From contig NZ_CP106798.1 in NCBI RefSeq assembly GCF_025642155.1, positions 496,001 through 560,000 on the forward strand: a DNA stretch of 64,000 nucleotides. The letters run 5' to 3'. This stretch comes from Streptomyces sp. HUAS 15-9 (GTDB lineage Bacteria; Actinomycetota; Actinomycetes; Streptomycetales; Streptomycetaceae). Under the pieces are notes generated by a model. The model had not been told where the DNA came from, did not search any database, and saw only the letters and a program-made list of their open reading frames with translations. The position numbers were made by a program, and so were the translations under genes. Positions 12,129 through 34,575 of this stretch are shown in pieces (position 1 is the stretch's first letter; each line of letters begins with the position of its first letter).

Positions 12129-12196
12129 GCCGAAGGTTGCCTTTCCCAGTCATCGCGGACGGTGGGTACCGGGGCACCGGCCTGGTCGGAGGATGC

Positions 12197-12631: not shown

Positions 12632-12670
12632 CGGCGCACCATAGCAGGGGGACTGCGTTGCTCAGGCCCC

Positions 12671-12960: not shown

Positions 12961-13116
12961 CCCTCACCGGCCTCCTCCCTGCCTGGCACCAACAGCGCCG
13001 GCGGCAGCCTGCCGATCCGGGACCGCACGTCCGGAGCGAAGTCCCGGATGGACGGCCCCCGTTGGGGCAAGAATCAGCTGAGTGCACCGGGGAACGTGCG
13101 GCTGTCTGGGGGGACG

Positions 13117-13786
13117 ATGGATGCTGGTGCGATCGCGACTCGCCTCGCCTCTGGTGTCATCACCCCCTTGGTCAAGAAGATGTTCGTCAGCGAAGGTCCG
13201 GGGGCCGGCCTCGTCGACCGGCCTGTGCGGATCTCCTCGCTGGTGTCGTTCACCGGTGAGAAGCGTCGGCTGACGGACGCGGACCTGCACAAGCTCACCC
13301 GGGCCCTGCTCCGCAGTGCGATGGGGTCCGCCCCCGTCGGTGAGCGGCCCGTCGCGCCGGACGAGGAGGATGCGGTCGCGCCGGCCCTGGCCCGGACCCT
13401 GATGCATCTCGGCGAGCTGGAGATGGACGACGTACAGGCCGTTCAGATGGGCCCGCAGGCGCTGCTCCAGGCATTGAAGGCCGCGGGACCGGACGCTACG
13501 CGCGACCTGTCCGCCGACGCCGCCCAACTCCACGACGCCCTCTTGGCAACGGCGTGCGTGCACATTCTCCATTTCTTCACCCAGCGCTCGACATTTGTCG
13601 CACGTACGCTCGTCGAGCACAGCAGCCGCCGCCCGGGCCGTGGACATTTCCTCGCTGGCCGCCCACCCCAGCCTGCGCCAACTGCGCGTTCCGTCGCACC
13701 AGCCGGTCACGAGCGAGGAGTCGCTCCATGGCAGGGTGCAACTCGCGTCGTACGTACCTGATCCGGGGACGGGCCTCGGCGTGTGA
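13117..13786 (+). pseudogene. Remnant of a NACHT-type NTPase (N-terminal helical domain plus possible LRR-like tail)
   Basis: From the ATG at 13117 (GGGGGGAC just upstream) about 168 codons encode an alpha-helical domain: MDAGAIATRLASGVITPLVKK, GLVDRPVRISSLVSF, HILHFFTQRSTFVARTLVE. I recognise this as the N-terminal helical domain that precedes NACHT NTPase modules in Streptomyces NLR-like proteins. The NACHT Walker motifs do not follow. After about 13620 the frame becomes noise, while the frame beginning at 13595 gives VDISSLAAHPSLRQLRV, like one leucine-rich C-terminal repeat. An internal deletion joining the two ends would explain this. Confidence 0.6.
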
Positions 13787-13788
13787 GC

Positions 13789-14238
13789 TCAGCGTTGGCC
13801 TTCGACAAAGTCCTTGAACTGTTCGAGATCCTGCTGGATCAGATGCTGGATCCTGTCGGACTGGGCGAACCCTTTGGGGCCGCCGAAGGTCTCGCGGGTC
13901 TTCTCCGGGTCGTACTCGACGCGAAGCTGTATCTGCGTGTGCTCGTCGTCGATCGCCCGTACGGTGAACGCGCCCTTGAGATCGGCGCCCTCACCCTTGG
14001 CGGTGTGCCACATCATCACGCTGCCCTGCGCACCGCCCTTGGCACGGTCGGTGAACTCGGCATCGAGTTCTCGCGGTCCCGCCGCCGATTCCAGGGCCAG
14101 ATGTGCTCGGCGCTTGCCCTCTGGTCGCGCTTCCCGGACGCCGTCCACGAACTGCGGAAGGCTCTCCACGCTGTGCAGGTAGTCCCAGGCCACCTCGGCG
14201 GGTACAGCAACGTCGATCTGGTTCTCGATCGTGGACAT
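13789..14238 (-). CDS. SRPBCC-family (polyketide cyclase/START-like) protein
   Basis: A 149-residue helix-grip-fold protein. The N-terminal pattern IDVAVPAEVAWDYLHSVESLPQFVDGV and the C-terminal helix DRIQHLIQQDLEQFKDFVEG are typical of small SRPBCC/cyclase-dehydrase proteins that bind hydrophobic ligands in a cavity. The ATG at 14238 is preceded on the minus strand by GGAGGTG; the longer ORF start at 14286 is less likely. No polyketide genes lie nearby, so a biosynthetic role is not supported. Confidence 0.85.
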   Translation of the reverse strand: MSTIENQIDVAVPAEVAWDYLHSVESLPQFVDGVREARPEGKRRAHLALESAAGPRELDAEFTDRAKGGAQGSVMMWHTAKGEGADLKGAFTVRAIDDEHTQIQLRVEYDPEKTRETFGGPKGFAQSDRIQHLIQQDLEQFKDFVEGQR

Positions 14239-14421
14239 GTGCGACACCTCCGTGATCATCCGCACAGGTAACGGGCCGGTCCCCACCTCCCACCATCGGC
14301 CGTCCGGGGGATGCCCGCACCCGGAGGGCGCCCACGACCACGCGGGGAGCCGCGAAATGCGGTTCGCCGTCAGGCCGGGTGAGGCAGTTGTGCCCTCATG
14401 TCACGCCTTCGCGGTCTCGGA

Positions 14422-15084
14422 TCACGTCGGCCGCACCGCCTGCACATGGCGCAGCCACGGCCGTACGTCGCCGCTGCCGCGCACCTCGAAGCCCGCGTCG
14501 GTGATCAGTCCCTCCAGCAGGTCCACGCGATGGTGTGCCATGGCGTGGCCCGCCCCGCCATGCACCAGGTGGCGGCCGAGCCTGGACTTCGGCGGGCGGA
14601 ACTCGACGACCAGCAGGCGCCCGCCGGGCCGCAGAACCCGGCGCATCTCACGCAGTGCGGCAGGCCGGATCTCCTCCGGCAGGTGGTGCAGCATCAGGCT
14701 GGTGACGACCGTGTCGAAGGCGGCATCGGGCAGGTCGAGGGACTCGGCGATGCCCTCCCGATAGGTGCAGGCGGCACTGCCCGGCCGTGGCTTGCGCCTG
14801 CGGGCGTAGTCGAGGACCGGCGGTGACGCGTCGACACCGGTCACCGCGCCCTCGGGGCCGACCCGCGTGGCCATGTGCCGGGTGAGGTAGCCGGTGCCGC
14901 AGCCCACGTCCAGGACGCGGTCACCGGGCTCGGCTCCGCTGAGCTCGGCGAGGCGGGTGAAAGCGCGGTTACGGCGACCGGCGAAGCACAGGGCGCCGAA
15001 GACTTCGTACGCGCGCGGGGTTGCGATCGTCACGCCAGGTGTGTCCGGGCGCGGCTTGCCTTGCATGAGGTGACCGAGGGACAT
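14422..15084 (-). CDS. Class I SAM-dependent methyltransferase
   Basis: A 220-residue Rossmann-fold methyltransferase. Motif I is VLDVGCGTGYLTRH, followed by the acidic ribose-binding VTGVDASP, motif IV-like FDTVVTSLMLHHLP and the post-motif LRPGGRLLVVEF. A strong GGAGGAGGG site precedes its ATG. It is divergent from a TetR regulator, with two near-identical operators between the starts, so it is very probably that regulator's target. The substrate cannot be told from sequence; ubiquinone/menaquinone or small-molecule O-methylation are both possible. Confidence 0.9.
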   Translation of the reverse strand: MSLGHLMQGKPRPDTPGVTIATPRAYEVFGALCFAGRRNRAFTRLAELSGAEPGDRVLDVGCGTGYLTRHMATRVGPEGAVTGVDASPPVLDYARRRKPRPGSAACTYREGIAESLDLPDAAFDTVVTSLMLHHLPEEIRPAALREMRRVLRPGGRLLVVEFRPPKSRLGRHLVHGGAGHAMAHHRVDLLEGLITDAGFEVRGSGDVRPWLRHVQAVRPT

Positions 15085-15100
15085 GGACCCTCCTCCATAA

Positions 15101-15144
15101 CTTAGTCGCGACTAAGTACCGCTCCTAACTTAGTCGCAACTAAG
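15101..15144. promoter_or_regulatory. Twin TetR operators
   Basis: CTTAGTCGCGACTAAG (15101-15116) is a perfect 16-bp palindrome. CTTAGTCGCAACTAAG (15129-15144) is the same with one change. Their centres are 28 bases apart, between the divergent methyltransferase and TetR genes, as expected for autoregulated TetR repressors. Confidence 0.88.
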
Positions 15145-15168
15145 AGAAACGGCAAGGGGCGGCATAGG

Positions 15169-15831
15169 ATGACGGGCGTGACCGAGCCCCGAGCCCGTAC
15201 CCGGACGCGCCTGCCCGCGGCGCAGCGGCGCGCGTCCATCCTCATGGCCGCCACGGAGGTCTTCTCCGAGACCGGCTACCAGCGGGGCAAGGTCTCCGAC
15301 ATCGCCAGGCGCGTCGGCGTCACCGAGCCGGTGGTGTTCCAGAACTTCGGATCCAAGGCCGCGCTGTACCGGGCGGCCCTCGACCACGCCACCTCAGCAG
15401 TGTCCGAACTCCTCAACCGGGCCGCCGACGCCGGACGCCCGGTCCCCGAGGTCCTGGCGGCCTTCCTCGATCCGGCCCACATGGACCGCTTCCACCAGCC
15501 CGGATCCCACGGGTTCCTCTTCGCCGACGCCACGGCCCTGTCCCACGACCCGGAACTCGGAGACGCCCTCCGCCAGGTCCACCAGCACTTCGCCGACTTG
15601 CTCGCCGACCTGCTCCGCCGCGGCCAGGACGCGGGCGACATCCGCCACGACATCGACCCGCACACCGCGGCCTGGTGGCTCATCTCGCTCTTGGCGGGCC
15701 GTTCCTTCCGTGCGGCAGTGGTCTCCGACCGGGAGACCGTGGAGGCCGCGGTGACGGACATGGCGCTGCGGTCGTTGCTGCCGGAGAGGCACGAAGAGCC
15801 GGAAGCGCCGGAGGAGCCGGACGGCCCCTGA
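15169..15831 (+). CDS. TetR-family transcriptional regulator
   Basis: A 220-residue TetR regulator. The N-terminal helix-turn-helix (RRASILMAATEVFSETGYQ, then VSDIARRVGVTEPVVFQNFGSKAAL) is followed by an all-helical ligand-binding domain. The ATG at 15169 is followed by a possible GTG at 15178; either gives a full DNA-binding domain. It most likely represses itself and the divergent methyltransferase through the twin operators. The C-terminal tail is rich in Glu and Pro. Confidence 0.92.
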   Translation: MTGVTEPRARTRTRLPAAQRRASILMAATEVFSETGYQRGKVSDIARRVGVTEPVVFQNFGSKAALYRAALDHATSAVSELLNRAADAGRPVPEVLAAFLDPAHMDRFHQPGSHGFLFADATALSHDPELGDALRQVHQHFADLLADLLRRGQDAGDIRHDIDPHTAAWWLISLLAGRSFRAAVVSDRETVEAAVTDMALRSLLPERHEEPEAPEEPDGP

Positions 15832-15900
15832 CCCCGCGATCGTCGGCAGCAATGGGACTGCCACCGAGGTGCCCCGTCCCGCCGCCGGGAGAGACCATGG

Positions 15901-15942
15901 AGGCGGGGTACCTGGAGGCGGGGTACCTGGAGGCGGGGGTAC
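15901..15942 (+). repeat. 15-bp tandem repeat
   Basis: The unit AGGCGGGGTACCTGG occurs twice exactly (15901-15915, 15916-15930), followed by a partial third copy with an extra G. It lies just upstream of the PAS/SpoIIE phosphatase gene. No function can be assigned. Confidence 0.8.
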
Positions 15943-16018
15943 GTGCGGTCGCGGCCGGGTTTCGGCCCGGTCCCGGGAGCGGGTCGTACGGCACCATCGG
16001 CTGGAAGGAGGGCCGGCG

Positions 16019-18142
16019 ATGAGCGCCAGCTCATCCGGGCAGCCTCCTGCCGACCTCGGACTGGAGAACAGCGGCCGGCCGGAGGACCGAACGCCGGCGC
16101 CGAGCGGGTTGATGGACCTGCTGGGTGTCGCCGCGGTGCTGCTGGACGCCGAGGGCCGCATCGTCCTGTGGAGTCCGCAGGCCGAGGCGCTCTACGGCTA
16201 CACCGCCGAGCAAGCACTCGGCCAGTTCGCGGCACAGCTGCTCGTCCACGAAGACAACTGGGACTGGGTGATCAAGACATTCGCCGAGGTCATGGAGACG
16301 GGCCAGCCCTGGGCGGGCACGTTCCCCATCCGTTGTGCGGACGGCGGCACACGTCTGGTGGAGCTGCGCAACATGCGCCTGCTCAACGACCACGGCGACT
16401 TCTACGCCCTTGGCCTGGGCGCCGACTCCCCCACGCTGCGCGAGCTCGAGAAGAACGTCGCCCTGTCCACGCGGCTGGTCTCCCAGTCCCCCATCGGCGT
16501 GGCCATCCTGGACACCGACCTGCGGTACGTGACCGTCAACCCGGCTCTGGAGCGCATGCACGGACTTGCCGCGAAGCATCACCTCGGGCGCCACTACCGC
16601 GAGGTCCTGAAGTCCTCGGAGTTCGAGACGGCCGAGGCGGCGATGCGGCGGGTCCTGGAGACCGGGATCCCGCTGGTGGAGGAGTCGACCGTCGTCGGGC
16701 GCACACCTTCCGACCCCGGGCGCACGCATGCGTGGTCGATCTCGGTGTACCGGCTGGAGGACACCCGGGGCCAGGTTCTCGGGGTGGCCGAGTGGGTGGT
16801 CGACGTCACCGAGCGCTACGAATCCGCGCTGGCGGCCACCGAGACACGCCGGCGTCTGGCTCTCATCGCCGCCGGTTCCATCCGCATCGGCACGACGTTG
16901 GAGGTCGACCAGACGGCCCGGGAGCTGGCTGACGTCACCGTGCCCGACTTCGCCGACGTGGTCTCCGTCGACGTACTCGACTCGGTCCTGGACGAGCACC
17001 GCCCCCGGTCCCATACCGGTCCGGAGGTCTTCCGTGCCCTGGCGGTGAAGGTGGCCTATCCCACCGACGCCGAGCTGGCCGCCGACCCACCCGGTGAGCT
17101 CGCGGCGTACGGTGCCGACCGGCTGGCCACGCAGTGCGTGCGCACGGGCCGCCCCATCCTGGTCAGCCACGCCGAGGGCGGTGACCTCAGGCGCATGGCC
17201 CGTGACGACCACGCGGCCACTCTGCTGGCGCGCGCAGGGGTGCACTCGTACCTCGCCGTTCCGCTCACCGCCCGCGGCAACACGCTCGGCTTCCTCGGCC
17301 TCACCCGTGCCCGCGACCCACGTCCCTTCGACGAGGACGACCTCGCCATCGCCGTGGAACTTGCCTCCCGCACCGGGGTGTGCATCGACAACGCCCGCAC
17401 GCACCAGAGCGTGCGCAGCGCCGCCGAGACCCTGCAGCGCAGTCTGCTCCCCGACCTGCCGACGGATCTTCCCGGTCTGCAGGTCGCCGCGCGTTACCGG
17501 CCCGCGCAGGCCGCGTACGAGATCGGCGGTGACTGGTACGACGTGCTGCCGCTGCACAATGCCAGGACGGCGCTCGTCGTGGGCGACGTCATGGGCAGCG
17601 GCATCGACGCCGCCGCCACGATGGGCCGCCTGCGCACCGCCACCGCGGCCTACGCCGACCTGGACCTCGAACCCGCCCAGGTTCTGCAGCACCTCGACGC
17701 GATCACCGGCCGGCTGGAGCAGTACATCGCCACGTGCCTCTACGCCGTGTACGACCCCCACCGCGGTGAATGCCGCATCGCCAGCGCCGGACATCTGCCC
17801 CCGGTCCTCGTACGCGTCGGTCGACGCCCCGCGCTCCTCGACCTGCCCACCGGCGCTCCTCTGGGAGTGGGCGGCGTCCCGTTCGAGAGCACCGCCATCG
17901 AACTCGCCCCCCACGATCAACTGGTGCTGTACACCGACGGACTGGTCGAGACCCGCGACCACCCCATCGACGAGCGCCTCGACACCCTCCTGCACCTCCT
18001 CGAGGAACCAGGCCCACTGGAGGACACCTGCGACCGCCTCCTCCACCGCCTCCGCCACCCCGGCGCCCCCGACGACGTAGCCCTGCTCATCGCCTGCGCA
18101 CGCCCTCTCGGTCCGGATGACCCCGGGCAGGAAGGCCGGTGA
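16019..18142 (+). CDS. PAS-GAF-SpoIIE protein serine phosphatase
   Basis: A 707-residue multi-domain signalling phosphatase. Order: PAS domain (about 25-135, GVAAVLLDAEGRIVLWSP), second PAS (about 150-275, GVAILDTDLRYVTVN), GAF domain (about 290-470) and C-terminal SpoIIE/PP2C domain (about 480-700). The last contains the metal-binding EIGGDWYDV and VGDVMGSGIDAA motifs and LYTDGLVETR. Such proteins dephosphorylate anti-anti-sigma factors. The ATG at 16019 has GGAAGGAGGG upstream; the longer frame from 15869 only reads through the tandem repeat. No HATPase anti-sigma domain or sigma factor lies nearby, so its target is unknown. Confidence 0.92.
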   Translation: MSASSSGQPPADLGLENSGRPEDRTPAPSGLMDLLGVAAVLLDAEGRIVLWSPQAEALYGYTAEQALGQFAAQLLVHEDNWDWVIKTFAEVMETGQPWAGTFPIRCADGGTRLVELRNMRLLNDHGDFYALGLGADSPTLRELEKNVALSTRLVSQSPIGVAILDTDLRYVTVNPALERMHGLAAKHHLGRHYREVLKSSEFETAEAAMRRVLETGIPLVEESTVVGRTPSDPGRTHAWSISVYRLEDTRGQVLGVAEWVVDVTERYESALAATETRRRLALIAAGSIRIGTTLEVDQTARELADVTVPDFADVVSVDVLDSVLDEHRPRSHTGPEVFRALAVKVAYPTDAELAADPPGELAAYGADRLATQCVRTGRPILVSHAEGGDLRRMARDDHAATLLARAGVHSYLAVPLTARGNTLGFLGLTRARDPRPFDEDDLAIAVELASRTGVCIDNARTHQSVRSAAETLQRSLLPDLPTDLPGLQVAARYRPAQAAYEIGGDWYDVLPLHNARTALVVGDVMGSGIDAAATMGRLRTATAAYADLDLEPAQVLQHLDAITGRLEQYIATCLYAVYDPHRGECRIASAGHLPPVLVRVGRRPALLDLPTGAPLGVGGVPFESTAIELAPHDQLVLYTDGLVETRDHPIDERLDTLLHLLEEPGPLEDTCDRLLHRLRHPGAPDDVALLIACARPLGPDDPGQEGR

Positions 18143-25917: not shown

Positions 25918-26988
25918 TCACCCGTGCCGGCGCAGGTCGTGGAAGAAGTCCTCGACGACATGGAGTTGCCCGGAGCGCGCCGTCTCGTCGTACACGTACT
26001 TGCCGACGGCGAGGTCGAGTACGCCGAGGCCGAACGGCGAGAACACCACAGGCCGGTCGGTGGGGGGCGTCACGCGTCCGGTCATGACGTCGGCGAGTGT
26101 GCCGTGCAGGAAGTCTCGGTTGCCGGTGAGCTGTTCGGCCAGATGCGGGGAGGTGTCGGCCTTGAGGCAGTGGTCGACGTCGTCGACGATGTTGGTCGAG
26201 GCGAGGATGATCCGGGGCGCCAGGTCGCGCAGGGACACATGCAGGACCAGCGGATTGTGGTGGAACCAAGCCGGGTCGCTGACGTGCGGCTCGCCCGCGA
26301 TGGTGGCGAACACGACGAGGTCACTGGAGCGGATGAGTTCCTCGGGGTCGTCGTGCACGGTGATCTGTCCGGCGCTGCCGGTCCGTCGAAGGTGGTCCCC
26401 GAACCCCGCGGCGCTCTGCTGGGACAGGTCATGGACGCCGGTCTCGTCGAAGGACCAGCCCACGGCGGTCAGGAAGGTGTGGATGTAGCGGGCGATCAGG
26501 CCCGTGCCGAAGAACCCGATGCGGGTGGGCCGTTGCCGGTTGCGGGTGAGGTGGTCGGCCGCCAGTGCCGCGGACGCGGCGGTTCTGGTGGCGCTGATGA
26601 TGGAGCTTTCCAGGCAGGCGAAGGGATAGCCGGTGTCGTGATCGTTGAGGATCAGGACGGCGGAGGCCCTGGGGATACCCGCCTGGACGTTGTCGGGGAA
26701 ACTGGAGATCCATTTGAGGCCGTCCACCCGGTCCTGCCCGCCGATCGAGGCGGGCAGGGCGATGATCCGGGAGGTGGGGCGGTCGGGGAACCGCAGGAAG
26801 TAGGACGGCGGGTTGACCGACTCTCCGGCGGCGTGCAGCAGATAGGTGGCCTCGACGAGGTCCACGATCTGCGGTTCCCGGCCCCGCAGGGCGTGCTGGA
26901 CCTGTGCTCCGGCGATCACTGCGAACGATGGCACGGTGTACGGCTGGGACATGGCGGGCTCCATTGCCGTGGAAGGGGCGTTGGTCAT
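25918..26988 (-). CDS. sbnB: 2,3-diaminopropionate biosynthesis protein SbnB-like
   Basis: A 356-residue ornithine cyclodeaminase/mu-crystallin family enzyme. In the SbnB branch it oxidatively cleaves N-(1-amino-1-carboxyl-2-ethyl)-glutamate to 2-oxoglutarate and L-2,3-diaminopropionate. Visible are the opening IAGAQVQHALRGREPQIVDLVEATYLL pattern, the Rossmann motif IGFFGTGLIARYI, and the catalytic/substrate stretch SFPDNVQAGIPRASAVLILND typical of SbnB. The ATG at 26988 overlaps the dioxygenase stop (ATGA), indicating translational coupling. Its partner SbnA is encoded at 33577, across the NRPS genes. It is the last gene of the minus-strand operon. Confidence 0.9.
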   Translation of the reverse strand: MTNAPSTAMEPAMSQPYTVPSFAVIAGAQVQHALRGREPQIVDLVEATYLLHAAGESVNPPSYFLRFPDRPTSRIIALPASIGGQDRVDGLKWISSFPDNVQAGIPRASAVLILNDHDTGYPFACLESSIISATRTAASAALAADHLTRNRQRPTRIGFFGTGLIARYIHTFLTAVGWSFDETGVHDLSQQSAAGFGDHLRRTGSAGQITVHDDPEELIRSSDLVVFATIAGEPHVSDPAWFHHNPLVLHVSLRDLAPRIILASTNIVDDVDHCLKADTSPHLAEQLTGNRDFLHGTLADVMTGRVTPPTDRPVVFSPFGLGVLDLAVGKYVYDETARSGQLHVVEDFFHDLRRHG

Positions 26989-27989
26989 CGGCTGCTCATC
27001 TCGGCGGGCGGCGCGCACGGGGCCGGCGTGAGCGGCTCGGCCATGGCGACGAGTACGTCACGTGGTCCCTGGAATGCCTCCCTGCTGTGTGCCGTGCGCA
27101 CATTGTCGACGAGCATGAGGTCGCCGGCCCGCCACGGCGCGCGGGCCGTGTGGGCGGCGTAGATGTCGTTGAGGAGCTGGACGATGTCCGGGCCGATGGG
27201 GTCGCCGCTTCCGAAGCGGGTGTTGAACGGCAGCGAGTCGGCGCCGTGGACGTCGATGAGGTAGTCGCGGATCTCGGGTTCGATCGTCCATTCGTTGAGG
27301 AAGGCGATCTGGTTGAACCAGCAGCGGCGGCCGGTGACCGGGTGGACCGTCACGGCGGGGCGGCGCTGTCGCGTGCGCAGACTGCCGTCGGTTTGCCAGG
27401 CGAACGCGATGCCGGCGCTGCGGCAGTAGTCCTCGACGGCACCGCGGTCATCGGTGCCGAAGGCCTCGCTGTAGGGGGCGCCGATCTCGTCGTTGTAGGT
27501 ACGGGTGAGCAGCCAGCCTTCCCGCTCGAAGCGCTCGACCAGTTCGTCCGGCAGCGCCTCCAGGACGGCGCAGGCATCGGCGATGGCGGTGGCTCCGCCG
27601 GTGGCGGGTGCGGTCAGACAGGCGAACAGCATCAGGCCAGGCGGCCGGAGTGTGTAGCTGAGTTCGTGGTGCATGCACATCGGCTGGGTCGGTGGCCAGG
27701 CCGAGGAGGAGTACACGCCCGGGGCGTACGTCCTGCGGGGAGCGAAGGACTCCCTGTCGGTCATCAGGGCCGGGGCCAGCCGGTGGAGGACGACGCCGGC
27801 CTGGTTCGCGTCACGCAGGCGCAGGCCACGGACGAGGACCGCGCCGTGTTCGGTGACCAGGGTGCGCAGTGCGTGACGGTGGTCGGCCGCCCACGCCGGG
27901 GCGTCGCCGGGGGTGTCCACGTACAGGACCGGGGGCTTGCCGGGGTTCAGGTCCACCTTGAGGAGGGACGCCGGCGTCGCGTAGGACAT
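26985..27989 (-). CDS. TauD/SyrP-like Fe(II)/2-oxoglutarate dioxygenase
   Basis: A 334-residue TauD/TfdA-family dioxygenase. The iron facial triad appears as HxE (MHHELSY, near residue 103) plus a distal His in VRTAHSREAF; HxE rather than HxD is usual in the SyrP/clavaminate synthase-like branch. Such enzymes often beta-hydroxylate amino acids bound to NRPS carrier proteins. Lying between the NRPS gene and SbnB, it may hydroxylate a carrier-bound or free diaminopropionate unit; this is inference. The ATG at 27989 has GGAAAG upstream; the open frame to 28412 is a shadow of the NRPS gene. Confidence 0.87.
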   Translation of the reverse strand: MSYATPASLLKVDLNPGKPPVLYVDTPGDAPAWAADHRHALRTLVTEHGAVLVRGLRLRDANQAGVVLHRLAPALMTDRESFAPRRTYAPGVYSSSAWPPTQPMCMHHELSYTLRPPGLMLFACLTAPATGGATAIADACAVLEALPDELVERFEREGWLLTRTYNDEIGAPYSEAFGTDDRGAVEDYCRSAGIAFAWQTDGSLRTRQRRPAVTVHPVTGRRCWFNQIAFLNEWTIEPEIRDYLIDVHGADSLPFNTRFGSGDPIGPDIVQLLNDIYAAHTARAPWRAGDLMLVDNVRTAHSREAFQGPRDVLVAMAEPLTPAPCAPPAEMSSR

Positions 27990-28004
27990 GGTGGCTTTCC
28001 TTTC

Positions 28005-28064
28005 GATGTGGCTCATGTGGATGTGGTTCATGTTGATGTGGTTCGGTTCGATGTGGTTCAGCAA
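28005..28064. repeat. Four imperfect 15-bp tandem repeats
   Basis: Units start at 28005, 28020, 28035 and 28050, each beginning GATGTGG(C/T)TC. They fill the spacer between the NRPS stop and the dioxygenase start and run a few bases into the NRPS 3' end. On the minus (coding) strand each reads as a repeated AACCACATC element just before the dioxygenase ribosome binding site. Confidence 0.85.
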
Positions 28065-30571
28065 GCGGTCATCGGTTCGGGCGCTTGGCGCTCGGTTCGG
28101 TCGTCGACCAGGGCGGCCAGGTCGGTGAGGACCGGGTGTGCCATGACGTCCTTGAGGGACACGGTGCGGTCCAGGGCTATGGCGAGCTTCACCGCCGAGA
28201 GGGAGTTGCCGCCGCGGTCGAAGAAGTGGTCGCGGCGTCCGATGCGCTCTTCCGGCACGCCGAGGACATGGCCCCAGGCGGCGGCCAGCCGCTGCTCGGT
28301 CGGAGTGGCCGGTGGCTCGTGAGCGTCCTCGCTGCCGGCGCACTCGGTGGCGAGCACCGTCAGCGCCTTCTTGTCGATCTTGCTGTTGGCGGTCAGCGGA
28401 AGGCTTTCGCACCAGTGGAAGGCGGCCGGGACCATGTAGGCGGGCAGCGAGGCACCCAGCCGGTCGGCGAGGCTCCCGGAGTCGACGGGGTTCTGAGCGG
28501 AGTAGAAGGCGACCAGGTGCTTGCCGCGATCGGCGCGCTCGGTGACCACCACCGCGCCGTCGCGGACACCGGGCAGGCCCAGCAGGGCGTTCTCGATCTC
28601 GCCGATCTCGATCCGGAACCCGCGGATCTTGACCTGCGCATCGCGTCGGCCGAGGAACTCCAGCTTGCCCGAAGGATGCCAGCGGCCGTAGTCACCGCCG
28701 AGATAGAGCCGTGTGCCGGTCCGGTGCGGATCGTCGAGATAGGCCGCTCGGGTGCGTTCGGGATCGTTGATGTAGCCGCGGCCGACACACACTCCGGAGA
28801 ACGCGATCAGGCCCGGCGCACCGAGTGGCACCGGTGCGAGGTGTTCGTCGACGACGTAGATGCGCACGTTGTTGACCGCCCGGCCGAGCAGGATGCGTTC
28901 CGGTGCCCGGTGCATGATCTCGTGGTTGGTGTCGTCCGAGGTCTCGGTGAGCCCGTAGGCGTTGACCAGCCTGATCCGGGGCTGGGCGGTGAACCAGCGC
29001 TCGGCGAGTTCCTTCTTCAGCGCTTCCCCGGTGACGGACACGTACCGCAGATCGGGCAGCGCGCGGGGGCGCTGTTCGAGCTCGGTAAGAACGGCTTCGA
29101 GGTAGGACGGCACGACCTGGACGACGGTGGCCCTGCCCTCGGTGACGGTGTCGAGGAATCGGGGGACGTCAAGGATGGCGTCCTGCTCGACCAGCAGGGC
29201 TCGCCCACCGGTCAGCAGGGCGCAGAGCAGTTGCCACAGGGAGATGTCGAAGCACTGCGGCGCGGTCTGGGCCACCACATGTCCTTCACCGATCTCGAGG
29301 TCGTCGATCTTGGCGTAGAGGTGGTTGAGCAGACCGGCGTGTTCACACATGGCGCCTTTCGGCTCACCGGTGGAGCCGGAGGTGAAGTAGATGTAGGCCA
29401 GTTGGCCGGGCGTGACCGGGATGCCGAGATCGTCGTCCGCGTGGTCTTCCTCGTACGCCGCCTCGACGAAGAGCCTCTCGACTCCGGGCAGCGAGTCGAC
29501 GGCCCGGTCGAGGGTGGTGGTGCTGCCGGGTTCGGTCAGCGCCAGGGCGCAGTCGGCGCGGGAGAGCATGGCGGCGATGCGTTCGGCCGGGAAGTGCGGC
29601 TCGATGGGCAGGTAGGCAGCTCCGGACTTGAAGACCGCGAGGACCGCAGTCAGCCAGTCCAGGTTGCGTTCGGTCACCACCGCGACGACGCCTTCGCGAA
29701 CCTGCCCACGGGCGGCAAGGGCGCGGGCCACCCGGTTCGCCCGGGCGTTGAGCTCCGCATAGGTCCACTGCCGGCCGGCGTGCACGGCGGCGACGGCATC
29801 CGGATGCATCCGCACCCGTTCCTCGAACAGCTCATGCACCCTCGCGTTCGGCAACTCTCGTTCGGGTCCTGCGAGTTGCTCCAACTGAAGGCGTTTTTCC
29901 GCGGCGGACAGCAGGCTCTGGCGGGCGTGTTCGGCATCGGGGTCGGCGGTCATCAGCGCCAGCGCGGTCAGGTGGTAGCCGGCGATGCGGGCGGCGCTCG
30001 TGGAGTCGAGCATGTCGGTGCGGTAACGCAGTCGCAGCACGAGCCGGCCGCCGTGGTGCCGGATGCCCACGCGCAGCGCGGTGTCCTCGGTGAGGTCCCC
30101 GTCGACCGCGGTGAGATCGAGGACGGTCTCGAACACCGGCCCGGTGAGGCGGAGTTCGCGCCGCAGCTGGTCGAGGTCCTCGGCCGGAACGGCCTGGTGC
30201 GCCCGCAGTGCAGCGACCGTCTGATGGCTTATGTGCGCCAGTTCCCACCAGGAGGCGGGTACCGTGGTGAGCCGGCACGGCAGCGGGCGGCCGTTCTCGG
30301 TGACGTAGCCGGTGGTGATCTCGCGCTCCGCGGACAGTGCCGCGAGGACCTTGGCGTGCGCCGCCAGCAGAAGCGAATCGATCGGTACCGCCAGTTCGTC
30401 CGCCAGTCGGCGCAGCCCGGCCACGGTACCGTCGGGGGCTTGTGCCTCGTACTGGCCGACGCCGGGCGTCGGGTGAGGGGTCCAGCGTGGTGCGGGGGTG
30501 AATCCGCCGGCTGTCAACACGCCGCGCCAGTACTCCAGGCCGTCGCGGGTGTGGTTCGGATGCGTTGTCAT
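28058..30571 (-). CDS. NRPS: truncated condensation, adenylation and carrier domains
   Basis: An 837-residue synthetase. Residues about 1-230 are only the C-terminal lobe of a condensation-like domain, without HHxxxDG, so it is not expected to condense. Residues about 245-735 are a complete adenylation domain: YFTSGSTGEPKG (A3), NAYGLTE (A5), YLGGDYGRW (A7) and NSKIDKK (A10, active Lys). Read by alignment to GrsA, the specificity residues are D-I-W-Q-S-T-A-D-D-K; the two Asp at positions 330/331 suit a basic amino acid. A carrier domain follows (GGNSLS, Ser near residue 790). No thioesterase, epimerase or second module exists. With SbnA/SbnB present I infer activation of diaminopropionate. 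Confidence 0.9.
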   Translation of the reverse strand: MTTHPNHTRDGLEYWRGVLTAGGFTPAPRWTPHPTPGVGQYEAQAPDGTVAGLRRLADELAVPIDSLLLAAHAKVLAALSAEREITTGYVTENGRPLPCRLTTVPASWWELAHISHQTVAALRAHQAVPAEDLDQLRRELRLTGPVFETVLDLTAVDGDLTEDTALRVGIRHHGGRLVLRLRYRTDMLDSTSAARIAGYHLTALALMTADPDAEHARQSLLSAAEKRLQLEQLAGPERELPNARVHELFEERVRMHPDAVAAVHAGRQWTYAELNARANRVARALAARGQVREGVVAVVTERNLDWLTAVLAVFKSGAAYLPIEPHFPAERIAAMLSRADCALALTEPGSTTTLDRAVDSLPGVERLFVEAAYEEDHADDDLGIPVTPGQLAYIYFTSGSTGEPKGAMCEHAGLLNHLYAKIDDLEIGEGHVVAQTAPQCFDISLWQLLCALLTGGRALLVEQDAILDVPRFLDTVTEGRATVVQVVPSYLEAVLTELEQRPRALPDLRYVSVTGEALKKELAERWFTAQPRIRLVNAYGLTETSDDTNHEIMHRAPERILLGRAVNNVRIYVVDEHLAPVPLGAPGLIAFSGVCVGRGYINDPERTRAAYLDDPHRTGTRLYLGGDYGRWHPSGKLEFLGRRDAQVKIRGFRIEIGEIENALLGLPGVRDGAVVVTERADRGKHLVAFYSAQNPVDSGSLADRLGASLPAYMVPAAFHWCESLPLTANSKIDKKALTVLATECAGSEDAHEPPATPTEQRLAAAWGHVLGVPEERIGRRDHFFDRGGNSLSAVKLAIALDRTVSLKDVMAHPVLTDLAALVDDRTERQAPEPMTAC

Positions 30572-30614
30572 CGGGTCATTTCCTCTGCTTGTTGCCGGTG
30601 TCGGTGTCGTGGGA

Positions 30615-33227
30615 TCAGTCGCCGCAGGCTCCGGCGGCGAGGGCGGCGTCGGTCTCCCGGCGGCTCTCGGGCTGGGTCTTGGGGCCGGGCATGTCCCGGG
30701 CCGGGTTGCCGGCCCACTGGGCGTGCGGGGAGACTTCCTCGCCCTTCATGAGGAAGGAGTCGGGGGCGAGCACGGCACCGTCGCCGATCGTCACGCCGTA
30801 GTGGACGAAGGCACCGACCCCGAGGGTGCAGCCGCTGCCGAGGGTGCTGCGGTCGGACTTGAAGGCGCCGTCCTCCTGCGAGTGGCACTGGACCACGGTC
30901 CCGGCGTTCAGCGTGGTGTCGTCGCCGATGGTCACGAGGGTGCGCTCAGGGAAGAAGCAGCCGTCGTCGAAGACCCGCTTGCCGATCCGGGCTCCCAGGA
31001 GCCGCCAGATCATGCTCTTGAAGGGGGTGCCGTCGAACACCTGGATGTAGTCGACCGAGGCCAGCTTCCAGAAGCGCTCGTGGCGCCAGAAAGGGGGCTC
31101 GTAGATCGAGCAGTACAGCGGCTTCTGTGTCCTGAATCCGGTGGAGGCCCGTTCGATCAGCGCGAAGTAGACGACGGTGAACGTGAGCGTGAGGACACCG
31201 GCCAGGGCGATCGCCGGTGCGCCGAGCGAGGGATAGAGGCCGGCCGCGCCCATGGTGATGAGGGTGATCACGAAGAGGTGGAGGAACCGCGCCGACAGGT
31301 ACAGGCCGGCGGTCACGGCATTGTGCCTGTTCTTGGCGGCCAGGCGGCGGCGCCGTTCGTCGCCGGTCTCCAGGTGGCTGAACCTGTTGTCCCGCATCAC
31401 CGTGCGCGGGATCTCGAAACTGGGTGAGCCCAGCAGGCCCACGCCCTCACGCACCGGACCGTCGATCGGGACCATGACCTTCGTGGCGAGCAGACAGTTG
31501 TCGCCGGTCTTGCCCTGGGAGGGGTAGGCGATGCGGTTCCCGAGGAAGTTCCGGGGGCCGATCGACGTGCGGGACACACGGAAGGACGTGCTGGAGAAGT
31601 CGGCGTTCATGAGGGACAGTCCGTCGGCGATCATGGTGCCGGTGCCGACAGAGCTCAGGTAGGGGTTGTCGTGCTGTACTTCGGTGCCGAAGTTGGACCC
31701 GGTCTGCTCGACTCGCGACAGGTCGTATCCGAGGTAGCGCAGGTAGTGCACGATGGCGGAGCTGTCGCCGAAGAGCGCGGTGAAGAACTTCCTGTTGGTC
31801 ATCAGCGCGATCGCCCGGTGGATGCCGTAGTGGAAGCCGTACAGCGGATAGACCTTGCCGGGCTTGATGGCCCGGTTGAGGACGCGCGGCACGGTGCCCA
31901 CGACGAGGAGGCCGGCGAGGAGGGAGCCGAAGAAGACCACCAGGGACGCGGTCAGCGCTTCGACGTAGAAAGCCGGGCTGCCCACCGGCCGGGGCTCCAG
32001 GAATGCGTGCAGCTCCGGGACGCCGGCCAGCAGGGCGCTCGCGCCGCCCATCGTCAACGGCAGCCACACCACCAGCAGGCTCAGCAACTGCATGGCGCCG
32101 TATGCGGTCCTCGTGCGGGTGGGGCAGTCGGCGGGGCCGACGGTCCGGTAGTCCACGTCGGCCGGCTGCGCCGGGGAGCCGTGCCAACGCGCGCCGGCGG
32201 GCACTGCCTGGCCGGCGTGCAGCGAGGAGGCGTGGCCCAGCTGGGAGCCGTCGCCCATCGAGGTGTCGATGTCGAGGACCGTGTGCTCGCTGACGAGCAC
32301 CTTGCTGCCGAGCGTGACCCGGCCGGTCTGGATCAGGCCGCCGCGTGCGCGGTAGCAGGACAACTGCACGTCCTTGCGGATGACCGTGCCGTCCCCGACC
32401 GTGAACAGATCAGTACAGACCGGGGCCGTACGCGTGAGGATCGTGACGCCCCTGCCGATCCGCGCACCCAGCGCCCTGAGGTAGAGCACGTAGAGCGGTG
32501 AACCGACGAACAGGCGCACGGGGCTGGTGCGGATCAGGGTCTTGACGATCCAGAAGCGCAGATAGGCCGTGCCCCACAAGGGAAACTCGCCGCATCGCCA
32601 ACGGCCGACGAGTGTCCACTTCGCCACGATCGGGAAGGTGCACAGGCCGAGAAAGGCCACGGCAGCGAACAGGACCGACCGCAGGTAGAGGTCGAACAGC
32701 CCCGAGCCTGCGGAGATCCAGTCATAGCCTTCGGCGACAGCGAAGGCGGCGAGGCAGGAATAGGCCAGGAAGACCAGGAACTGCACCATTCCGCAGACGA
32801 CGAATCGCCGGGTGGCGGCCGCGGTCCCCGCGTCGGCCGGCGGACGTGCCTGTGCCTGTGCTGTCGATTCCTCCGGCGGCGGCTGGGACGGGACGGAAGC
32901 GGGCGCGGTGTCGGAGAGTGCGACGGCCAGGCTCCGGATAGTGGGGTACCGGTAGATGTCCTTCATGGACACCGTCGGCAGATCCTCCCGCTTCCTCACC
33001 CGCGCACAGAACCGCGCCATCACCATGGAATCGGCGCCCAGGTCGTTGAAGAAGTGACTGTCGGCCGCCACCTGCTCGACTTGTACGACGCCGGCCAGCA
33101 CCTCGGCCAGAAGCCTCTCCATGACGGTCGTCATGCCGGTCGAGGTACCGGTAGATCTGCCGGTGTATCCACCAGTGGAGACGTCACTCGGAGCGGCCGC
33201 ACATACGCCCGCGGTTCTATCCAGCAC
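30615..33227 (-). CDS. Carrier domain plus Pls/PosA-type membrane terminal domain
   Basis: An 870-residue protein. Residues about 32-110 are a peptidyl carrier domain with LGADSM (Ser about 67). From about 142 it matches the C-terminal region of Pls/PosA-family synthetases (TIGR02353): three pairs of membrane helices (about 142-205, 385-453, 640-700) separating three soluble parts with left-handed beta-helix hexapeptide turns. In epsilon-poly-L-lysine synthase this region carries tandem condensation-like domains that elongate the chain. Here it is detached from its adenylation domain, which is the preceding separate protein. The GTG start at 33227 has GAGGAG upstream. It is the first gene of the minus-strand operon, 43 bases before the NRPS gene. 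Confidence 0.87.
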   Translation of the reverse strand: MLDRTAGVCAAAPSDVSTGGYTGRSTGTSTGMTTVMERLLAEVLAGVVQVEQVAADSHFFNDLGADSMVMARFCARVRKREDLPTVSMKDIYRYPTIRSLAVALSDTAPASVPSQPPPEESTAQAQARPPADAGTAAATRRFVVCGMVQFLVFLAYSCLAAFAVAEGYDWISAGSGLFDLYLRSVLFAAVAFLGLCTFPIVAKWTLVGRWRCGEFPLWGTAYLRFWIVKTLIRTSPVRLFVGSPLYVLYLRALGARIGRGVTILTRTAPVCTDLFTVGDGTVIRKDVQLSCYRARGGLIQTGRVTLGSKVLVSEHTVLDIDTSMGDGSQLGHASSLHAGQAVPAGARWHGSPAQPADVDYRTVGPADCPTRTRTAYGAMQLLSLLVVWLPLTMGGASALLAGVPELHAFLEPRPVGSPAFYVEALTASLVVFFGSLLAGLLVVGTVPRVLNRAIKPGKVYPLYGFHYGIHRAIALMTNRKFFTALFGDSSAIVHYLRYLGYDLSRVEQTGSNFGTEVQHDNPYLSSVGTGTMIADGLSLMNADFSSTSFRVSRTSIGPRNFLGNRIAYPSQGKTGDNCLLATKVMVPIDGPVREGVGLLGSPSFEIPRTVMRDNRFSHLETGDERRRRLAAKNRHNAVTAGLYLSARFLHLFVITLITMGAAGLYPSLGAPAIALAGVLTLTFTVVYFALIERASTGFRTQKPLYCSIYEPPFWRHERFWKLASVDYIQVFDGTPFKSMIWRLLGARIGKRVFDDGCFFPERTLVTIGDDTTLNAGTVVQCHSQEDGAFKSDRSTLGSGCTLGVGAFVHYGVTIGDGAVLAPDSFLMKGEEVSPHAQWAGNPARDMPGPKTQPESRRETDAALAAGACGD

Positions 33228-33576
33228 GATGGCTCCTCGAAGTCGATTCGGTGCGTGTCGATCGGTGCGTACGGATTCGTGACGCCCGCCTCTCCAGTAG
33301 GCCCGAGCGGGGAATTCCTGTCCCGTCCCTGAATTTCGGGTCTTGACACCGAACGCCGGTCTTGTTACTCGACCGCTCCCCCGCCCCAGCGGCGCCGCCT
33401 ACGCGCACACGAAGCGCATGTCAAGCCCCGAATTTCGGTGGCATGACACAACCGCTCCGAATTGGGCGTACTGGAGACGTTCCGGCGAGTCGAAACTCAC
33501 CGCCGAATTCCCCTCCCCCCTGCGGCACCGAGACGGATCAGCGGCCTGAAGGCCTCCCCTGATCGAGGAGACGAGC
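33228..33576. promoter_or_regulatory. Divergent promoter region of the diaminopropionate/NRPS cluster
   Basis: This 349-base spacer separates the Pls-like operon from the SbnA gene and is visibly richer in A and T than its surroundings. TTGACA at 33343-33348 with TTACTC at 33365-33370 (16-base spacer) is a possible promoter toward SbnA. Two related elements, TGAATTTCGGG (33330-33340) and the perfect dyad CCGAATTTCGG (33428-33438), may be operators. No regulator gene is next to them. Confidence 0.45.
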
Positions 33577-34575
33577 ATGCCTGTCATATCCGCCCCCCAG
33601 GCCTTCAATCAGGACGACCTCTACGTCGACCTCGAGGGAATCTTCGAGCACCCCTTGTTCCTCAAATGCGAGGGATTCAATTTCGCGGGCTCGATCAAAC
33701 TCAAGGCCGCCACCGAAATGGTCGAGGCCGCCGAACGCGACGGCCGGCTGACGCCGGACTCGATTCTGGTGGAGTCGTCCTCGGGCAACCTGGGCGTGGC
33801 CCTGAGCATGATCGCGGCCAACAAGGGATACCGGTTCGTGTGCGTGACCGACTCCCGCTGCAACCTGGCGACCCGGATGATGATGGAGGCCCTGGGCAGC
33901 CAGGTCCACATCGTCACCGAGCCCGATCCGGTCGGCGGCCTGCTCGGCGCACGCATCGGACACGTCCACGAACTGTGCGAGTCCGACGACCGGTATGTAT
34001 GGCTCAACCAGTACGCCAACCCCAGCAACGGCACGGCCCACTACCGAAGGACAGCCCCGGCGATCGCCCGGCAGTTCCCGGACCTGGAAGTGCTGTTCGT
34101 CGGGGCCGGGACCACCGGGACGCTGATGGGCTGCGCACGCTATTTCCGCGAGTGGCACCGGCCGGTGCGCATCGTGGCCGTCGACGCCATCGGCTCGGTG
34201 ACCTTCGGCGGCGCACCTGGCCGACGGATGATTCCCGGTCTGGGCACCAGCAGGCGCCCGCCGTTGCTGGACGAGTCGTATGTCGACGATGTGGTGCGTG
34301 TGGCGGAGGCCGACACCGTTCGGGCCTGCCACCGGCTGGCCAGGCGTGGGTTTCTGTTCGGGGGTTCCACCGGCACCGTGGTCAGCGGCGCGATGGCCTG
34401 GCTGGCTCGTCAGGAGGAGCGGGAACTGACCGCGGTGGCCATCGCCCCGGATCTTGGTGAGCGGTATCTGGAGACCATCTACCAGACCGCCTGGGTGGAG
34501 GACCTGTACGGCGATGACGTCCTCGACTCCGTCCCCGACTCCCGGCCGCTGAGCATCCCGTCCCAGGCAGCCTGA
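33577..34575 (+). CDS. sbnA: 2,3-diaminopropionate biosynthesis protein SbnA-like
   Basis: A 332-residue PLP-dependent fold-type II enzyme of the cysteine synthase family, SbnA branch, which joins O-phosphoserine and glutamate to make the precursor that SbnB cleaves to L-2,3-diaminopropionate. The PLP lysine is in FAGSIKLK (about residue 41), the phosphate/substrate loop is SSSGNLG, and the glycine-rich PLP phosphate loop is GAGTTGTLMG. It is transcribed away from the Pls-like operon, so both halves of the pathway flank the synthetase genes. No cysteine biosynthesis gene is near, which supports SbnA over CysK. Confidence 0.9.
   Translation: MPVISAPQAFNQDDLYVDLEGIFEHPLFLKCEGFNFAGSIKLKAATEMVEAAERDGRLTPDSILVESSSGNLGVALSMIAANKGYRFVCVTDSRCNLATRMMMEALGSQVHIVTEPDPVGGLLGARIGHVHELCESDDRYVWLNQYANPSNGTAHYRRTAPAIARQFPDLEVLFVGAGTTGTLMGCARYFREWHRPVRIVAVDAIGSVTFGGAPGRRMIPGLGTSRRPPLLDESYVDDVVRVAEADTVRACHRLARRGFLFGGSTGTVVSGAMAWLARQEERELTAVAIAPDLGERYLETIYQTAWVEDLYGDDVLDSVPDSRPLSIPSQAA

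What the first reader, a model, noticed from the sequence alone, without database searches (positions are those of the whole stretch)
25918..34575. Split Pls/PosA-type synthetase cluster with its own diaminopropionate supply and a dioxygenase
Seen: SbnA-like and SbnB-like genes at opposite ends of a cluster with a (half-C)-A-T protein, a separate T-plus-three-pairs-of-TM-helices protein like the C-terminal half of Pls/PosA, and an HxE-type Fe(II)/2OG dioxygenase. Known: Pls/PosA synthetases are single chains (A-T-TM/C-like) making epsilon-poly-lysine-type polymers; SbnA/SbnB make L-2,3-diaminopropionate. Inference: the locus makes a diaminopropionate homopolymer or short isopeptide, possibly beta-hydroxylated, by a synthetase divided over two polypeptides with two carrier domains. 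No thioesterase, exporter, MbtH or regulator is in the cluster.
Basis: partly seen in the sequence, partly recalled or inferred. Interest (0 to 1): 0.92.

Follow-up and report, generated by a model that had tools for sequence, protein, structure and literature searches.

The report
Trans-loaded membrane polymerase for diaminopropionate
Many Streptomyces-like bacteria carry a small gene set that appears to make the amino acid diaminopropionate, load it onto a carrier, oxidise it, and hand it to a separate membrane enzyme of the kind that joins such units into antimicrobial polymers; the product itself is unknown.

Summary
The five genes are real: SbnB, a TauD-type dioxygenase, (half-C)-A-T, T plus a complete Pls/PosA terminal domain (T-TM), and SbnA. 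They form a family: 64 of 80 named relatives of T-TM have all five, and none of the 69 with the A-T gene beside it fuses the two. In 199 same-genus genomes, 66 have a free T-TM protein and all 66 also have the A-T protein. It is not simply a Pls cut in two: gene order is reversed, there are two carriers, and the A-domain code (DIWQSTADDK) lacks the Pls/PosA signature. T-TM proteins form one clade inside single-chain synthetases of poly-Dap/Dab type, so one such synthetase seems to have lost its A domain. The A-T protein resembles trans-acting A-T-TE proteins of friulimicin and laspartomycin; 46 of 69 relatives have a fused thioesterase. Its cassette also occurs without T-TM, in two cases beside NRPS modules lacking an A domain. 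One natural 2323-residue fusion joins T-TM, A-T and dioxygenase. Best reading: a Pls/PosA-type polymerase loaded in trans with diaminopropionate, probably oxidised on the carrier. Substrate and product are untested.

The parts
25918..27018 (-). SbnB-family dehydrogenase (Dap supply, second half)
   Evidence: TIGR03944 430 bits, above cut-off 327; PF02423
26985..27989 (-). TauD-type Fe(II)/2OG dioxygenase, 334 aa; presumed metal and 2OG residues H107, E109, H301, R310 of this protein
27990..28057 (-). 68-bp gap where 46 of 69 relatives have a thioesterase domain fused to the A-T protein; none here
   Evidence: tblastn with the L013 thioesterase: hits in relatives, none in the window
28058..30571 (-). 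(half-C)-A-T protein, 837 aa, PstA/LpmA-like trans-acting adenylation protein
   Evidence: Pfam/NCBIfam domains; TIGR01733 371 bits; best 120 of 4990 relatives listed, 93% identity and below, with and without TE
29882..30532 (-). C-terminal lobe of a condensation domain only (aa about 14-230); no HHxxxDG
   Evidence: mean identity 57.1% over 80 family members
28367..29827 (-). A domain (aa about 249-735); ten-residue code DIWQSTADDK, read by motif placement on recalled PheA positions
28097..28294 (-). carrier domain T1 (aa about 760-825), phosphopantetheine Ser in GGNSL
   Evidence: PF00550 39 bits; Ser in 81 of 81 members with a residue there, 2 gaps
30615..33227 (-). T-TM protein, 870 aa: carrier plus Pls/PosA terminal domain without an A domain
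   Evidence: TIGR02353 798 bits over 1-695/695
32910..33110 (-). carrier domain T2 (aa about 40-106), Ser in DLGADS
   Evidence: PF00550 34.7 bits; S67 invariant in 13 of 13 aligned; motif DL[GNC]A[DN]S in 86 of 110 loci with a T-TM hit, the 110 including 16 single-chain loci and gapped ones
30699..32798 (-). Pls/PosA terminal domain: three helix hairpins, each followed by a left-handed beta-helix
33577..34575 (+). SbnA-family PLP enzyme (Dap supply, first half), divergent from the other four genes
   Evidence: TIGR03945 395 bits, above cut-off 350
33419..33448 (.). 30-bp palindrome TGTCAAGCCCCGAATTTCGGTGGCATGACA in the divergent promoter region, SbnA side (operator-like)
   Evidence: conserved in the 6 aligned loci
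33319..33348 (.). second, inverted copy of the same element, T-TM side
   Evidence: inverted pair I1, 30 nt, 77% complementary; conserved in the 6 aligned loci

Best explanation
A Pls/PosA-type membrane polymerase that has lost its own A domain and is loaded in trans. Steps: (1) SbnA and SbnB make L-2,3-diaminopropionate (Dap) [inferred from family; both models above cut-off]. (2) The (half-C)-A-T protein activates Dap and holds it on T1 [inferred from gene linkage and from the A-code class]. (3) The dioxygenase oxidises the carrier-bound Dap, most likely at C-beta [inferred]. (4) The aminoacyl unit reaches T2 of the membrane protein in trans, either because the A domain loads T2 directly or by transfer from T1; the fused thioesterase of many relatives may serve transfer or editing, and is dispensable [inferred; precedent: trans A-T-TE proteins of friulimicin and laspartomycin]. 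(5) The three hairpin/beta-helix units join the units through side-chain amines, as Pls/PosA do, giving a short cationic isopeptide or polymer, perhaps extruded by the same domain [inferred from homology; extrusion is a guess]. Shown here: gene set, domain content, conservation, single clade of the A-less membrane protein, and occurrence of the same cassette with other acceptors. Rough odds for the single steps: Dap as monomer 0.8; trans loading 0.8; oxidation of the carrier-bound monomer 0.65; isopeptide oligomer or polymer as product 0.65.
For: Gene set: 64 of 80 named loci have all five genes, 69 have the A-T gene; no fusion of the two synthetases in 69 of 69; no other gene family lies near the set in more than 7 of 92 loci. 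Co-occurrence: of 199 same-genus genomes 70 have a T-TM-type domain at E up to 1e-200; 4 of these are in frames of 1388-1441 aa (single chains); all 66 others also have the A-T protein, which 79 of 199 have. Origin: 26 cluster and 7 stand-alone T-TM proteins form one clade (SH-aLRT 100) inside single-chain A-T-TM proteins, whose A code is DFECLSVV[TS]K in all 121 rows read: L098 plus the best 120 of 6016 hits to it, one of them L098 itself; Phe at position 2 is the PDAP/PDAB mark in the PosA paper. Trans loading: of 12 loci with T-TM alone examined (11 of the 80 plus L016, which looks like a copy of L055), 10 have no A-domain hit in the stretch held, yet 8 of 10 such genomes hold the A-T protein elsewhere, against 79 of 199 (Fisher p 0.018). 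Portable cassette: A-T, dioxygenase, SbnB and SbnA in 9 of 14 more distant loci, only 3 of the 9 with T-TM; two NRPS clusters with the cassette have a C-T module with no AMP-binding domain (G036, G140); code DIWQSTADDK in 14 of 14. Joint work: one 2323-aa ORF T-TM + A-T + dioxygenase in a single-contig genome; a partial A-T-dioxygenase protein P0016. Precedent: PMC9113097 passages.
Against: No activity was measured. The code DIWQSTADDK was not found in print, and its likeness to Dab codes is partly recalled; one paper gives DVWQMIGDDK for a beta-hydroxylated residue among Dab-activating domains. The A domain lacks the Glu at position 3 that PosA-class A domains share. Beta-hydroxylation of Dap with a free beta-amine would give an unstable hemiaminal (chemical reasoning), so the oxidation may be something else or come after acylation. 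The dioxygenase is missing in one relative not cut by a contig end (L043), and SbnB was not found in two (L032, L088). A fused thioesterase in 46 of 69 relatives fits release of a defined product as well as a polymer. In five distant loci (L126-L129, L131) the same A code occurs without SbnB in the stretch held, beside a weaker SbnA-like enzyme in four of them. In G122 the A-less carrier could also be served by a free A domain; in the part of the G103 NRPS held no A-less module was seen; the G171 NRPS was not examined for this. L042 has a weak A-like hit about 9 kb from its T-TM gene. Stand-alone T-TM genomes: 2 of 10 have no A-T protein at the strict cut-off. 13 of the 79 genomes with the A-T protein have no free T-TM protein.
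Confidence: 0.6

Rival explanations
1. The membrane protein does not polymerise: it makes one or a few bonds (for example Dap-Dap, or Dap onto another acceptor), and the fused thioesterase of relatives releases a small defined molecule. The cluster makes a small Dap-derived antibiotic or metallophore.
For: Thioesterase fused to the A-T protein in 46 of 69 relatives, GHSSG in 51 of the 53 loci with a thioesterase hit. The same cassette sits beside ordinary NRPS lines, two of them with an A-less module, so its product is probably used as a single unit there.
Against: The terminal domain is a complete TIGR02353 domain and groups inside poly-Dap/Dab-type synthetases. The thioesterase is absent from this copy; its presence changes at least 3 times on the A-T tree by well supported branches, 7 on the best tree, so it is not needed for the basic reaction.
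Confidence: 0.2
2. The product is the branched comb-like Dap polymer (Dap side units on a poly-Dap chain) known from a Streptomyces: the two carrier domains would supply two kinds of Dap unit.
For: Such a polymer is cited in PMC9606270 and PMC10522769 (passages), and no gene set for it came up in the listings. Two carrier domains and a separate A-T protein could present two donors.
Against: Nothing links this cluster to that producer here. The dioxygenase, in 66 of 69 loci (2 of the other 3 are cut by contig ends), has no role in it. [quoted passage not shown]
Confidence: 0.07
3. The A domain activates another small amino acid (2,4-diaminobutyrate or 2,3-diaminobutyrate) and SbnA/SbnB-like enzymes make that one.
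For: The code resembles Dab-type codes (DVWQMIGDDK in PMC12283262; others recalled). DabA/DabB, which make a diaminobutyrate from threonine, resemble SbnA/SbnB (PMC4052310 passage). Single-chain kin include fusions with PF00202 (class III aminotransferase, name recalled), P0353 and P0360, as for 2,4-Dab supply.
Against: Both supply enzymes pass the NCBIfam equivalog cut-offs for Dap synthesis. A 3-phosphoglycerate dehydrogenase lies next to SbnA in L123, which fits O-phosphoserine as precursor.
Confidence: 0.1
4. Chance neighbours or a decayed Pls locus: an old synthetase broken in two.
For: This copy lacks the thioesterase that many relatives have.
Against: Reversed gene order, two carrier domains, 0 fusions in 69 loci, conserved catalytic residues, same code in 83 of 97 A-domain sequences, the other 14 being from single-chain or unrelated proteins, and the A-T protein in 66 of 66 genomes with a free T-TM protein.
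Confidence: 0.03

Closest known systems
Pls/PosA family cationic homopoly(amino acid) synthetases (epsilon-poly-lysine Pls, delta-poly-ornithine PosA, PDAP synthetase)
   Same: Complete terminal domain (TIGR02353, 798 bits) behind a carrier domain; same predicted build of three helix pairs and three left-handed beta-helices as described for PosA; nearest kin outside the clade are single chains with the PDAP/PDAB-type code.
   Different: No A domain in the chain; A domain of another type in a separate protein with its own carrier; dioxygenase and Dap supply in the same cluster. In S. albulus PD-1 the Dap genes are not close to the PDAP synthetase gene (PMC4668381).
Trans-acting A-T-TE tri-domain proteins PstA (friulimicin), LpmA (laspartomycin) and that of malacidin
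   Same: Free-standing A-T(-TE) protein, SbnA/SbnB-like supply genes, and acceptors without an A domain (known systems: passages). Here the acceptor is T-TM; in G036 and G140 a C-T module.
   Different: Acceptor is a Pls/PosA terminal domain; an N-terminal half-C is present; a dioxygenase is part of the cassette. No direct sequence comparison with PstA or LpmA was made.
Streptothricin ORF18/ORF19
   Same: Isopeptide oligomers of a diamino acid made by divided NRPS parts, the scaffold sitting on ORF18 (PMC9606270 passage).
   Different: There a stand-alone A domain mediates chain growth; no Pls/PosA terminal domain is mentioned in the passage seen.
TauD/SyrP-type carrier-dependent beta-hydroxylases
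   Same: PF02668 fold with H-x-E...H...R residues; fused or adjacent to the A-T protein.
   Different: The SyrP likeness is recalled; substrate and reaction of this branch are unknown.

Membership tests
Pls/PosA (CHPA) synthetase | Terminal domain TIGR02353 above its curated cut-off | tested here: met
   798.2 bits against 423.1, positions 1-695/695
Pls/PosA (CHPA) synthetase | Three TM-helix pairs, each followed by a left-handed beta-helix | tested here: met
   AlphaFold2 model, helices 139-207, 370-451, 622-695 and strand-rich repeats after each; first unit matches hexapeptide acyltransferases
Pls/PosA (CHPA) synthetase | A, T and terminal domain in one chain | tested here: not met
   Separate genes here and in 69 of 69 named loci with both; one reversed-order fusion, L134
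Pls/PosA (CHPA) synthetase | A-domain code with Asp at 1 and Glu at 3 | tested here: not met
   DIWQSTADDK: Trp at 3, against the rule in PMC10522769
Pls/PosA (CHPA) synthetase | Makes an isopeptide homopolymer of a diamino acid | not testable with these tools
   needs product analysis
PstA/LpmA-type trans A-T-TE protein | Free-standing A-T with C-terminal TE | tested here: not met
   A-T present, TE absent in this copy; present in 46 of 69 relatives
PstA/LpmA-type trans A-T-TE protein | Acceptor with a carrier but no A domain | tested here: met
   T-TM protein has PF00550 and TIGR02353, no AMP-binding; C-T modules without AMP-binding in G036 and G140
PstA/LpmA-type trans A-T-TE protein | Common descent with PstA/LpmA | not tested
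   their sequences were not fetched
Dap synthesis by SbnA/SbnB | Both proteins above their equivalog cut-offs | tested here: met
   TIGR03945 395 against 350; TIGR03944 430 against 327
Fe(II)/2OG dioxygenase, TauD superfamily | PF02668 plus conserved H-x-D/E...H...R | tested here: met
   155 bits; H107, E109, H301, R310 invariant in 25 of 25; HHE in 77 of 77
Carrier-dependent amino acid beta-hydroxylase | Acts on carrier-bound amino acid | not testable with these tools
   only indirect: fusion and co-travel with the A-T protein

The most novel reading that the evidence does not exclude
A modular pathway type: one portable cassette (SbnA, SbnB, A-T(-TE), dioxygenase) makes an oxidised diaminopropionate on a carrier and delivers it in trans to different acceptors, here an A-less Pls/PosA polymerase. 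The product would be a cationic poly(amino acid) whose monomer is oxidised before polymerisation (beta-hydroxylated, dehydro, or an aldehyde after loss of ammonia), a kind I found no report of.
Probability: 0.35. Interest if true: 0.8.

Novelty: new variant of a known kind. Interest (0 to 1): 0.62.

Why it matters
Pls/PosA enzymes make poly-lysine-type preservatives and antimicrobials, but their substrate step is welded to the polymerase. Here nature has detached it and put a tailoring oxidase beside it, apparently once, in a lineage found in 66 of 199 sampled genomes of the window's genus. If the mechanism holds, the polymerase domain accepts units from a partner protein, which makes its chemistry separately testable, and a large set of uncharacterised clusters gains a definite prediction.

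Tried and rejected
Rejected: decayed or split Pls (reversed order, two carriers, 0 fusions in 69). Rejected: half-C as a local truncation (present throughout the family). Long open frames suggested more fusions; in the G141, G181 and G222 loci checked, the frames only overlap or the match holds a stop, leaving L134 as the one full fusion seen. Searched for the code DIWQST and recalled Dab codes in print: nothing. Looked for a further conserved neighbour (exporter, regulator, MbtH): none in more than 7 of 92 loci. Looked for other genes with the palindrome in the own genome: of 5 pattern matches (1 with the backward control) two are the cluster's own; the third I read (C1:8715322) lies before a short secreted-protein-like ORF, not a polymerase; two weaker ones were not followed. 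Coprisamide and cinnamoyl-peptide lead for the L123-type clusters: recalled, not confirmed. Friulimicin and laspartomycin primary papers are not held; the review PMC9113097 was used instead.

Papers, what I saw: PMC4668381 parts 1-3 of 5; PMC10522769, PMC9606270, PMC9113097, PMC4052310, PMC11479980, PMC11162802, PMC12298158 and PMC6510318 passages; PMC12283262 passages and one section; others only in search listings. That I found no description of this cluster type rests in that library alone.

Limits: the ten-residue codes were read by motif placement on recalled PheA positions. Trees were quick ones (SH-aLRT, no bootstrap). For one search I used 49 of the 110 loci with a T-TM hit plus 40 of 120 single chains. 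One search kept 80 of 497 confirmed relatives, the nearest ones, so its counts favour close kin; sampled 199 genomes evenly. The gene calls come from a simple composition-based caller of mine. That the window's genus is Streptomyces is inferred from its nearest named relatives.

The count of same-genus genomes was mended from 11 to 10.

Full report
The dioxygenase really starts at 27989, judged by its homologues. The (half-C)-A-T protein carries only the C-terminal lobe of a condensation domain; this lobe is present throughout the family, at 57% mean identity to the window over 80 members, and none of 83 has the HHxxxDG motif. The membrane protein has its own carrier domain and a full-length TIGR02353 domain (798 bits). 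Its AlphaFold2 model (mean pLDDT 77, 33 aligned sequences) shows three helix hairpins, each followed by a left-handed beta-helix, the layout that the PosA paper predicts for this domain (passages).

It is a family. In 61 genomes (the own one and 60 relatives) the membrane protein has near-full-length relatives at 58-69% identity in 10 same-genus genomes besides the own one, and there is a second copy in the own genome (flanks). A scan of named genomes gave 497 confirmed relatives, of which the best 80 were kept. Of these 80, 64 have all five genes, 69 have the A-T gene, and 11 show only the membrane protein; one of those 11 (L098) is a single chain with its own A domain. The common arrangement is T-TM, A-T, [TE], dioxygenase, SbnB, SbnA on one strand (44 with and 12 without the thioesterase); the window's arrangement with SbnA divergent is seen in 5 loci that have all the other genes and no thioesterase. 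No other gene family is found near the cluster in more than 7 of 92 loci, so a linked exporter, regulator or MbtH is not a rule. In 199 same-genus genomes, 79 have the A-T protein and 70 a T-TM-type domain, each at E up to 1e-200. Four of the 70 lie in frames of 1388-1441 residues and are single chains (G094, G130, G183, G198); all 66 others also have the A-T protein, and 13 genomes have the A-T protein without a free T-TM protein.

It is not a Pls cut in two. Pls-type chains run A-T-TM. Here the gene order is T-TM then A-T, and both parts have a carrier domain. In 69 of 69 named loci with both genes they are separate. The A code is DIWQSTADDK or DIWQSTTDDK in 83 of 97 A-domain sequences found (2 of the 83 incomplete), the other 14 belonging to single-chain or unrelated proteins. 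The PosA paper says that A domains of this enzyme class keep Asp at position 1 and Glu at 3, with Phe at 2 for Dap and Dab (passages); the window's A domain has Trp at 3. The tree of terminal domains puts 26 cluster and 7 stand-alone proteins in one clade (SH-aLRT 100) inside single-chain A-T-TM proteins. All 121 single-chain rows read (L098 and the best 120 of 6016 hits to it, one of them L098 itself) have DFECLSVV[TS]K, the Dap/Dab-type code. So a Dap/Dab-type single-chain synthetase seems to have lost its A domain once and gained a new partner.

The partner looks like a trans-acting A-T-TE protein. In 46 of 69 named relatives a thioesterase is fused behind T1, with GHSSG in 51 of the 53 loci with a thioesterase hit; its presence changes at least 3 times on the A-T tree, 7 on the best one. 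The review PMC9113097 (passages) describes trans A-T-TE proteins in friulimicin, laspartomycin and malacidin that serve C-T modules without an A domain, and PMC4052310 (passage) describes SbnA/SbnB-like supply genes for friulimicin and laspartomycin. I did not compare sequences with PstA or LpmA.

Distant relatives of the A-T protein support this. In 14 loci with an A-T protein at 46 to 61% identity (the code is DIWQSTADDK in 14 of 14), 9 have SbnA and SbnB next to it, all 9 have the dioxygenase, and only 3 of the 9 have the membrane protein in the stretch held. Of the 6 without it, G122, G171, G036 and G140 sit beside large NRPS genes, and G103 has one within about 17 kb. G103 and G006 (L123, L124) have similar gene lengths around the cassette; in L123 the neighbours include ketosynthase-like genes and a 3-phosphoglycerate dehydrogenase. 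G036 and G140 each have a module in which the A domain is reduced to a stub between C and T; Pfam finds Condensation and PP-binding there and no AMP-binding. In G122 the second NRPS begins with a carrier without an A domain, but a free A domain is also present, so that case is open. In the part of the G103 NRPS held I saw no A-less module, and G171 was not examined for one. The remaining 5 of the 14 (L126-L129, L131) have the A-T-TE protein in other surroundings, four of them with an SbnA-like enzyme at 32-33% identity and three with a dioxygenase nearby. These results separate the two halves of the window's cluster: a cassette that makes and loads the monomer, and an acceptor.

The parts work together. 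In G138 a single open frame of 2323 residues holds the membrane protein, the A-T protein and the dioxygenase, in that order, with SbnB and SbnA following. A partial protein from Streptomyces sp. NPDC005407 joins A-T and dioxygenase. Of 12 loci with the membrane protein alone that I examined (11 of the 80, plus L016, which looks like a copy of L055), 10 have no A-domain hit in the stretch held; L098 is a single chain, and L042 has a weak hit about 9 kb away. Several of these proteins have two carriers. Of the 10 named genomes with such a stand-alone protein, 8 have the A-T protein elsewhere at E up to 1e-200, against 79 of 199 (Fisher p 0.018).

Regulation. Two inverted copies of a 30-bp palindrome lie between SbnA and the membrane-protein gene. 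Both are conserved in five close relatives. Matches with up to 6 mismatches occur in 14 of 93 loci, among them stand-alone membrane-protein loci (L016, L031, L055). In 2.03 Mb of loci, 15 sites have up to 5 mismatches against 0 in three simulations; the 15 include the window's own site, from which the consensus was taken, and close kin. In the own genome the two best of five pattern matches are the cluster's own. This suggests a shared, unidentified regulator.

Verdict. I found no description of this arrangement in the library searched. It is a new variant of a known kind; the product remains to be shown.

Noticed in passing
L013 (G000:C1:8136000-8155000), 7887-16889: The own genome has a second complete cluster of the same kind, all genes on one strand, with a thioesterase fused to the A-T protein.
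   Followed up: partly
P0353, P0360, P0257, P0271, P0279, P0282, P0301: Single-chain Dap/Dab-type A-T-TM proteins whose Pfam listing adds PF00202 (P0353, P0360), PF00696 with PF22468 (P0257) or PF01648 (the rest); by recall these are class III aminotransferase, aspartokinase with ACT domain, and phosphopantetheinyl transferase. The first two would fit a Dab supply in the same chain.
   Followed up: no
L126, L127, L128, L129, L131, L152: Clusters with the same A code (read in five of them) in an A-T-TE protein, without SbnB in the stretches held; SbnA-like PLP enzyme in five of six; GHMP kinase-like gene (L126), ATP-grasp ligase (L128) or extra thioesterase (L127); dioxygenase on the opposite strand in four of six. 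Probably another Dap-like pathway.
   Followed up: partly
L016, L031, L042, L051, L069, L090 and others: Stand-alone carrier plus Pls/PosA terminal domain proteins, several with two carriers, with no closely linked A gene. A family of about 408-aa proteins, not identified, lies near 7 of 92 loci, for example L016.
   Followed up: partly
window 33319-33448: Inverted pair of 30-bp palindromes in the divergent promoter, with similar sites near stand-alone T-TM genes in other genomes.
   Followed up: partly
L025, L026 (G053): A more distant genome of the same class has tandem, partly broken or gapped copies of T-TM with up to three carriers, and two A-T genes.
   Followed up: no
PMC11479980: S. 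scabies protein C9YUJ1 (SbnB-like), encoded near an sbnA homologue and an NRPS gene, is reported overproduced with potato tuber (passage). Whether it belongs to this cluster type was not tested.
   Followed up: no
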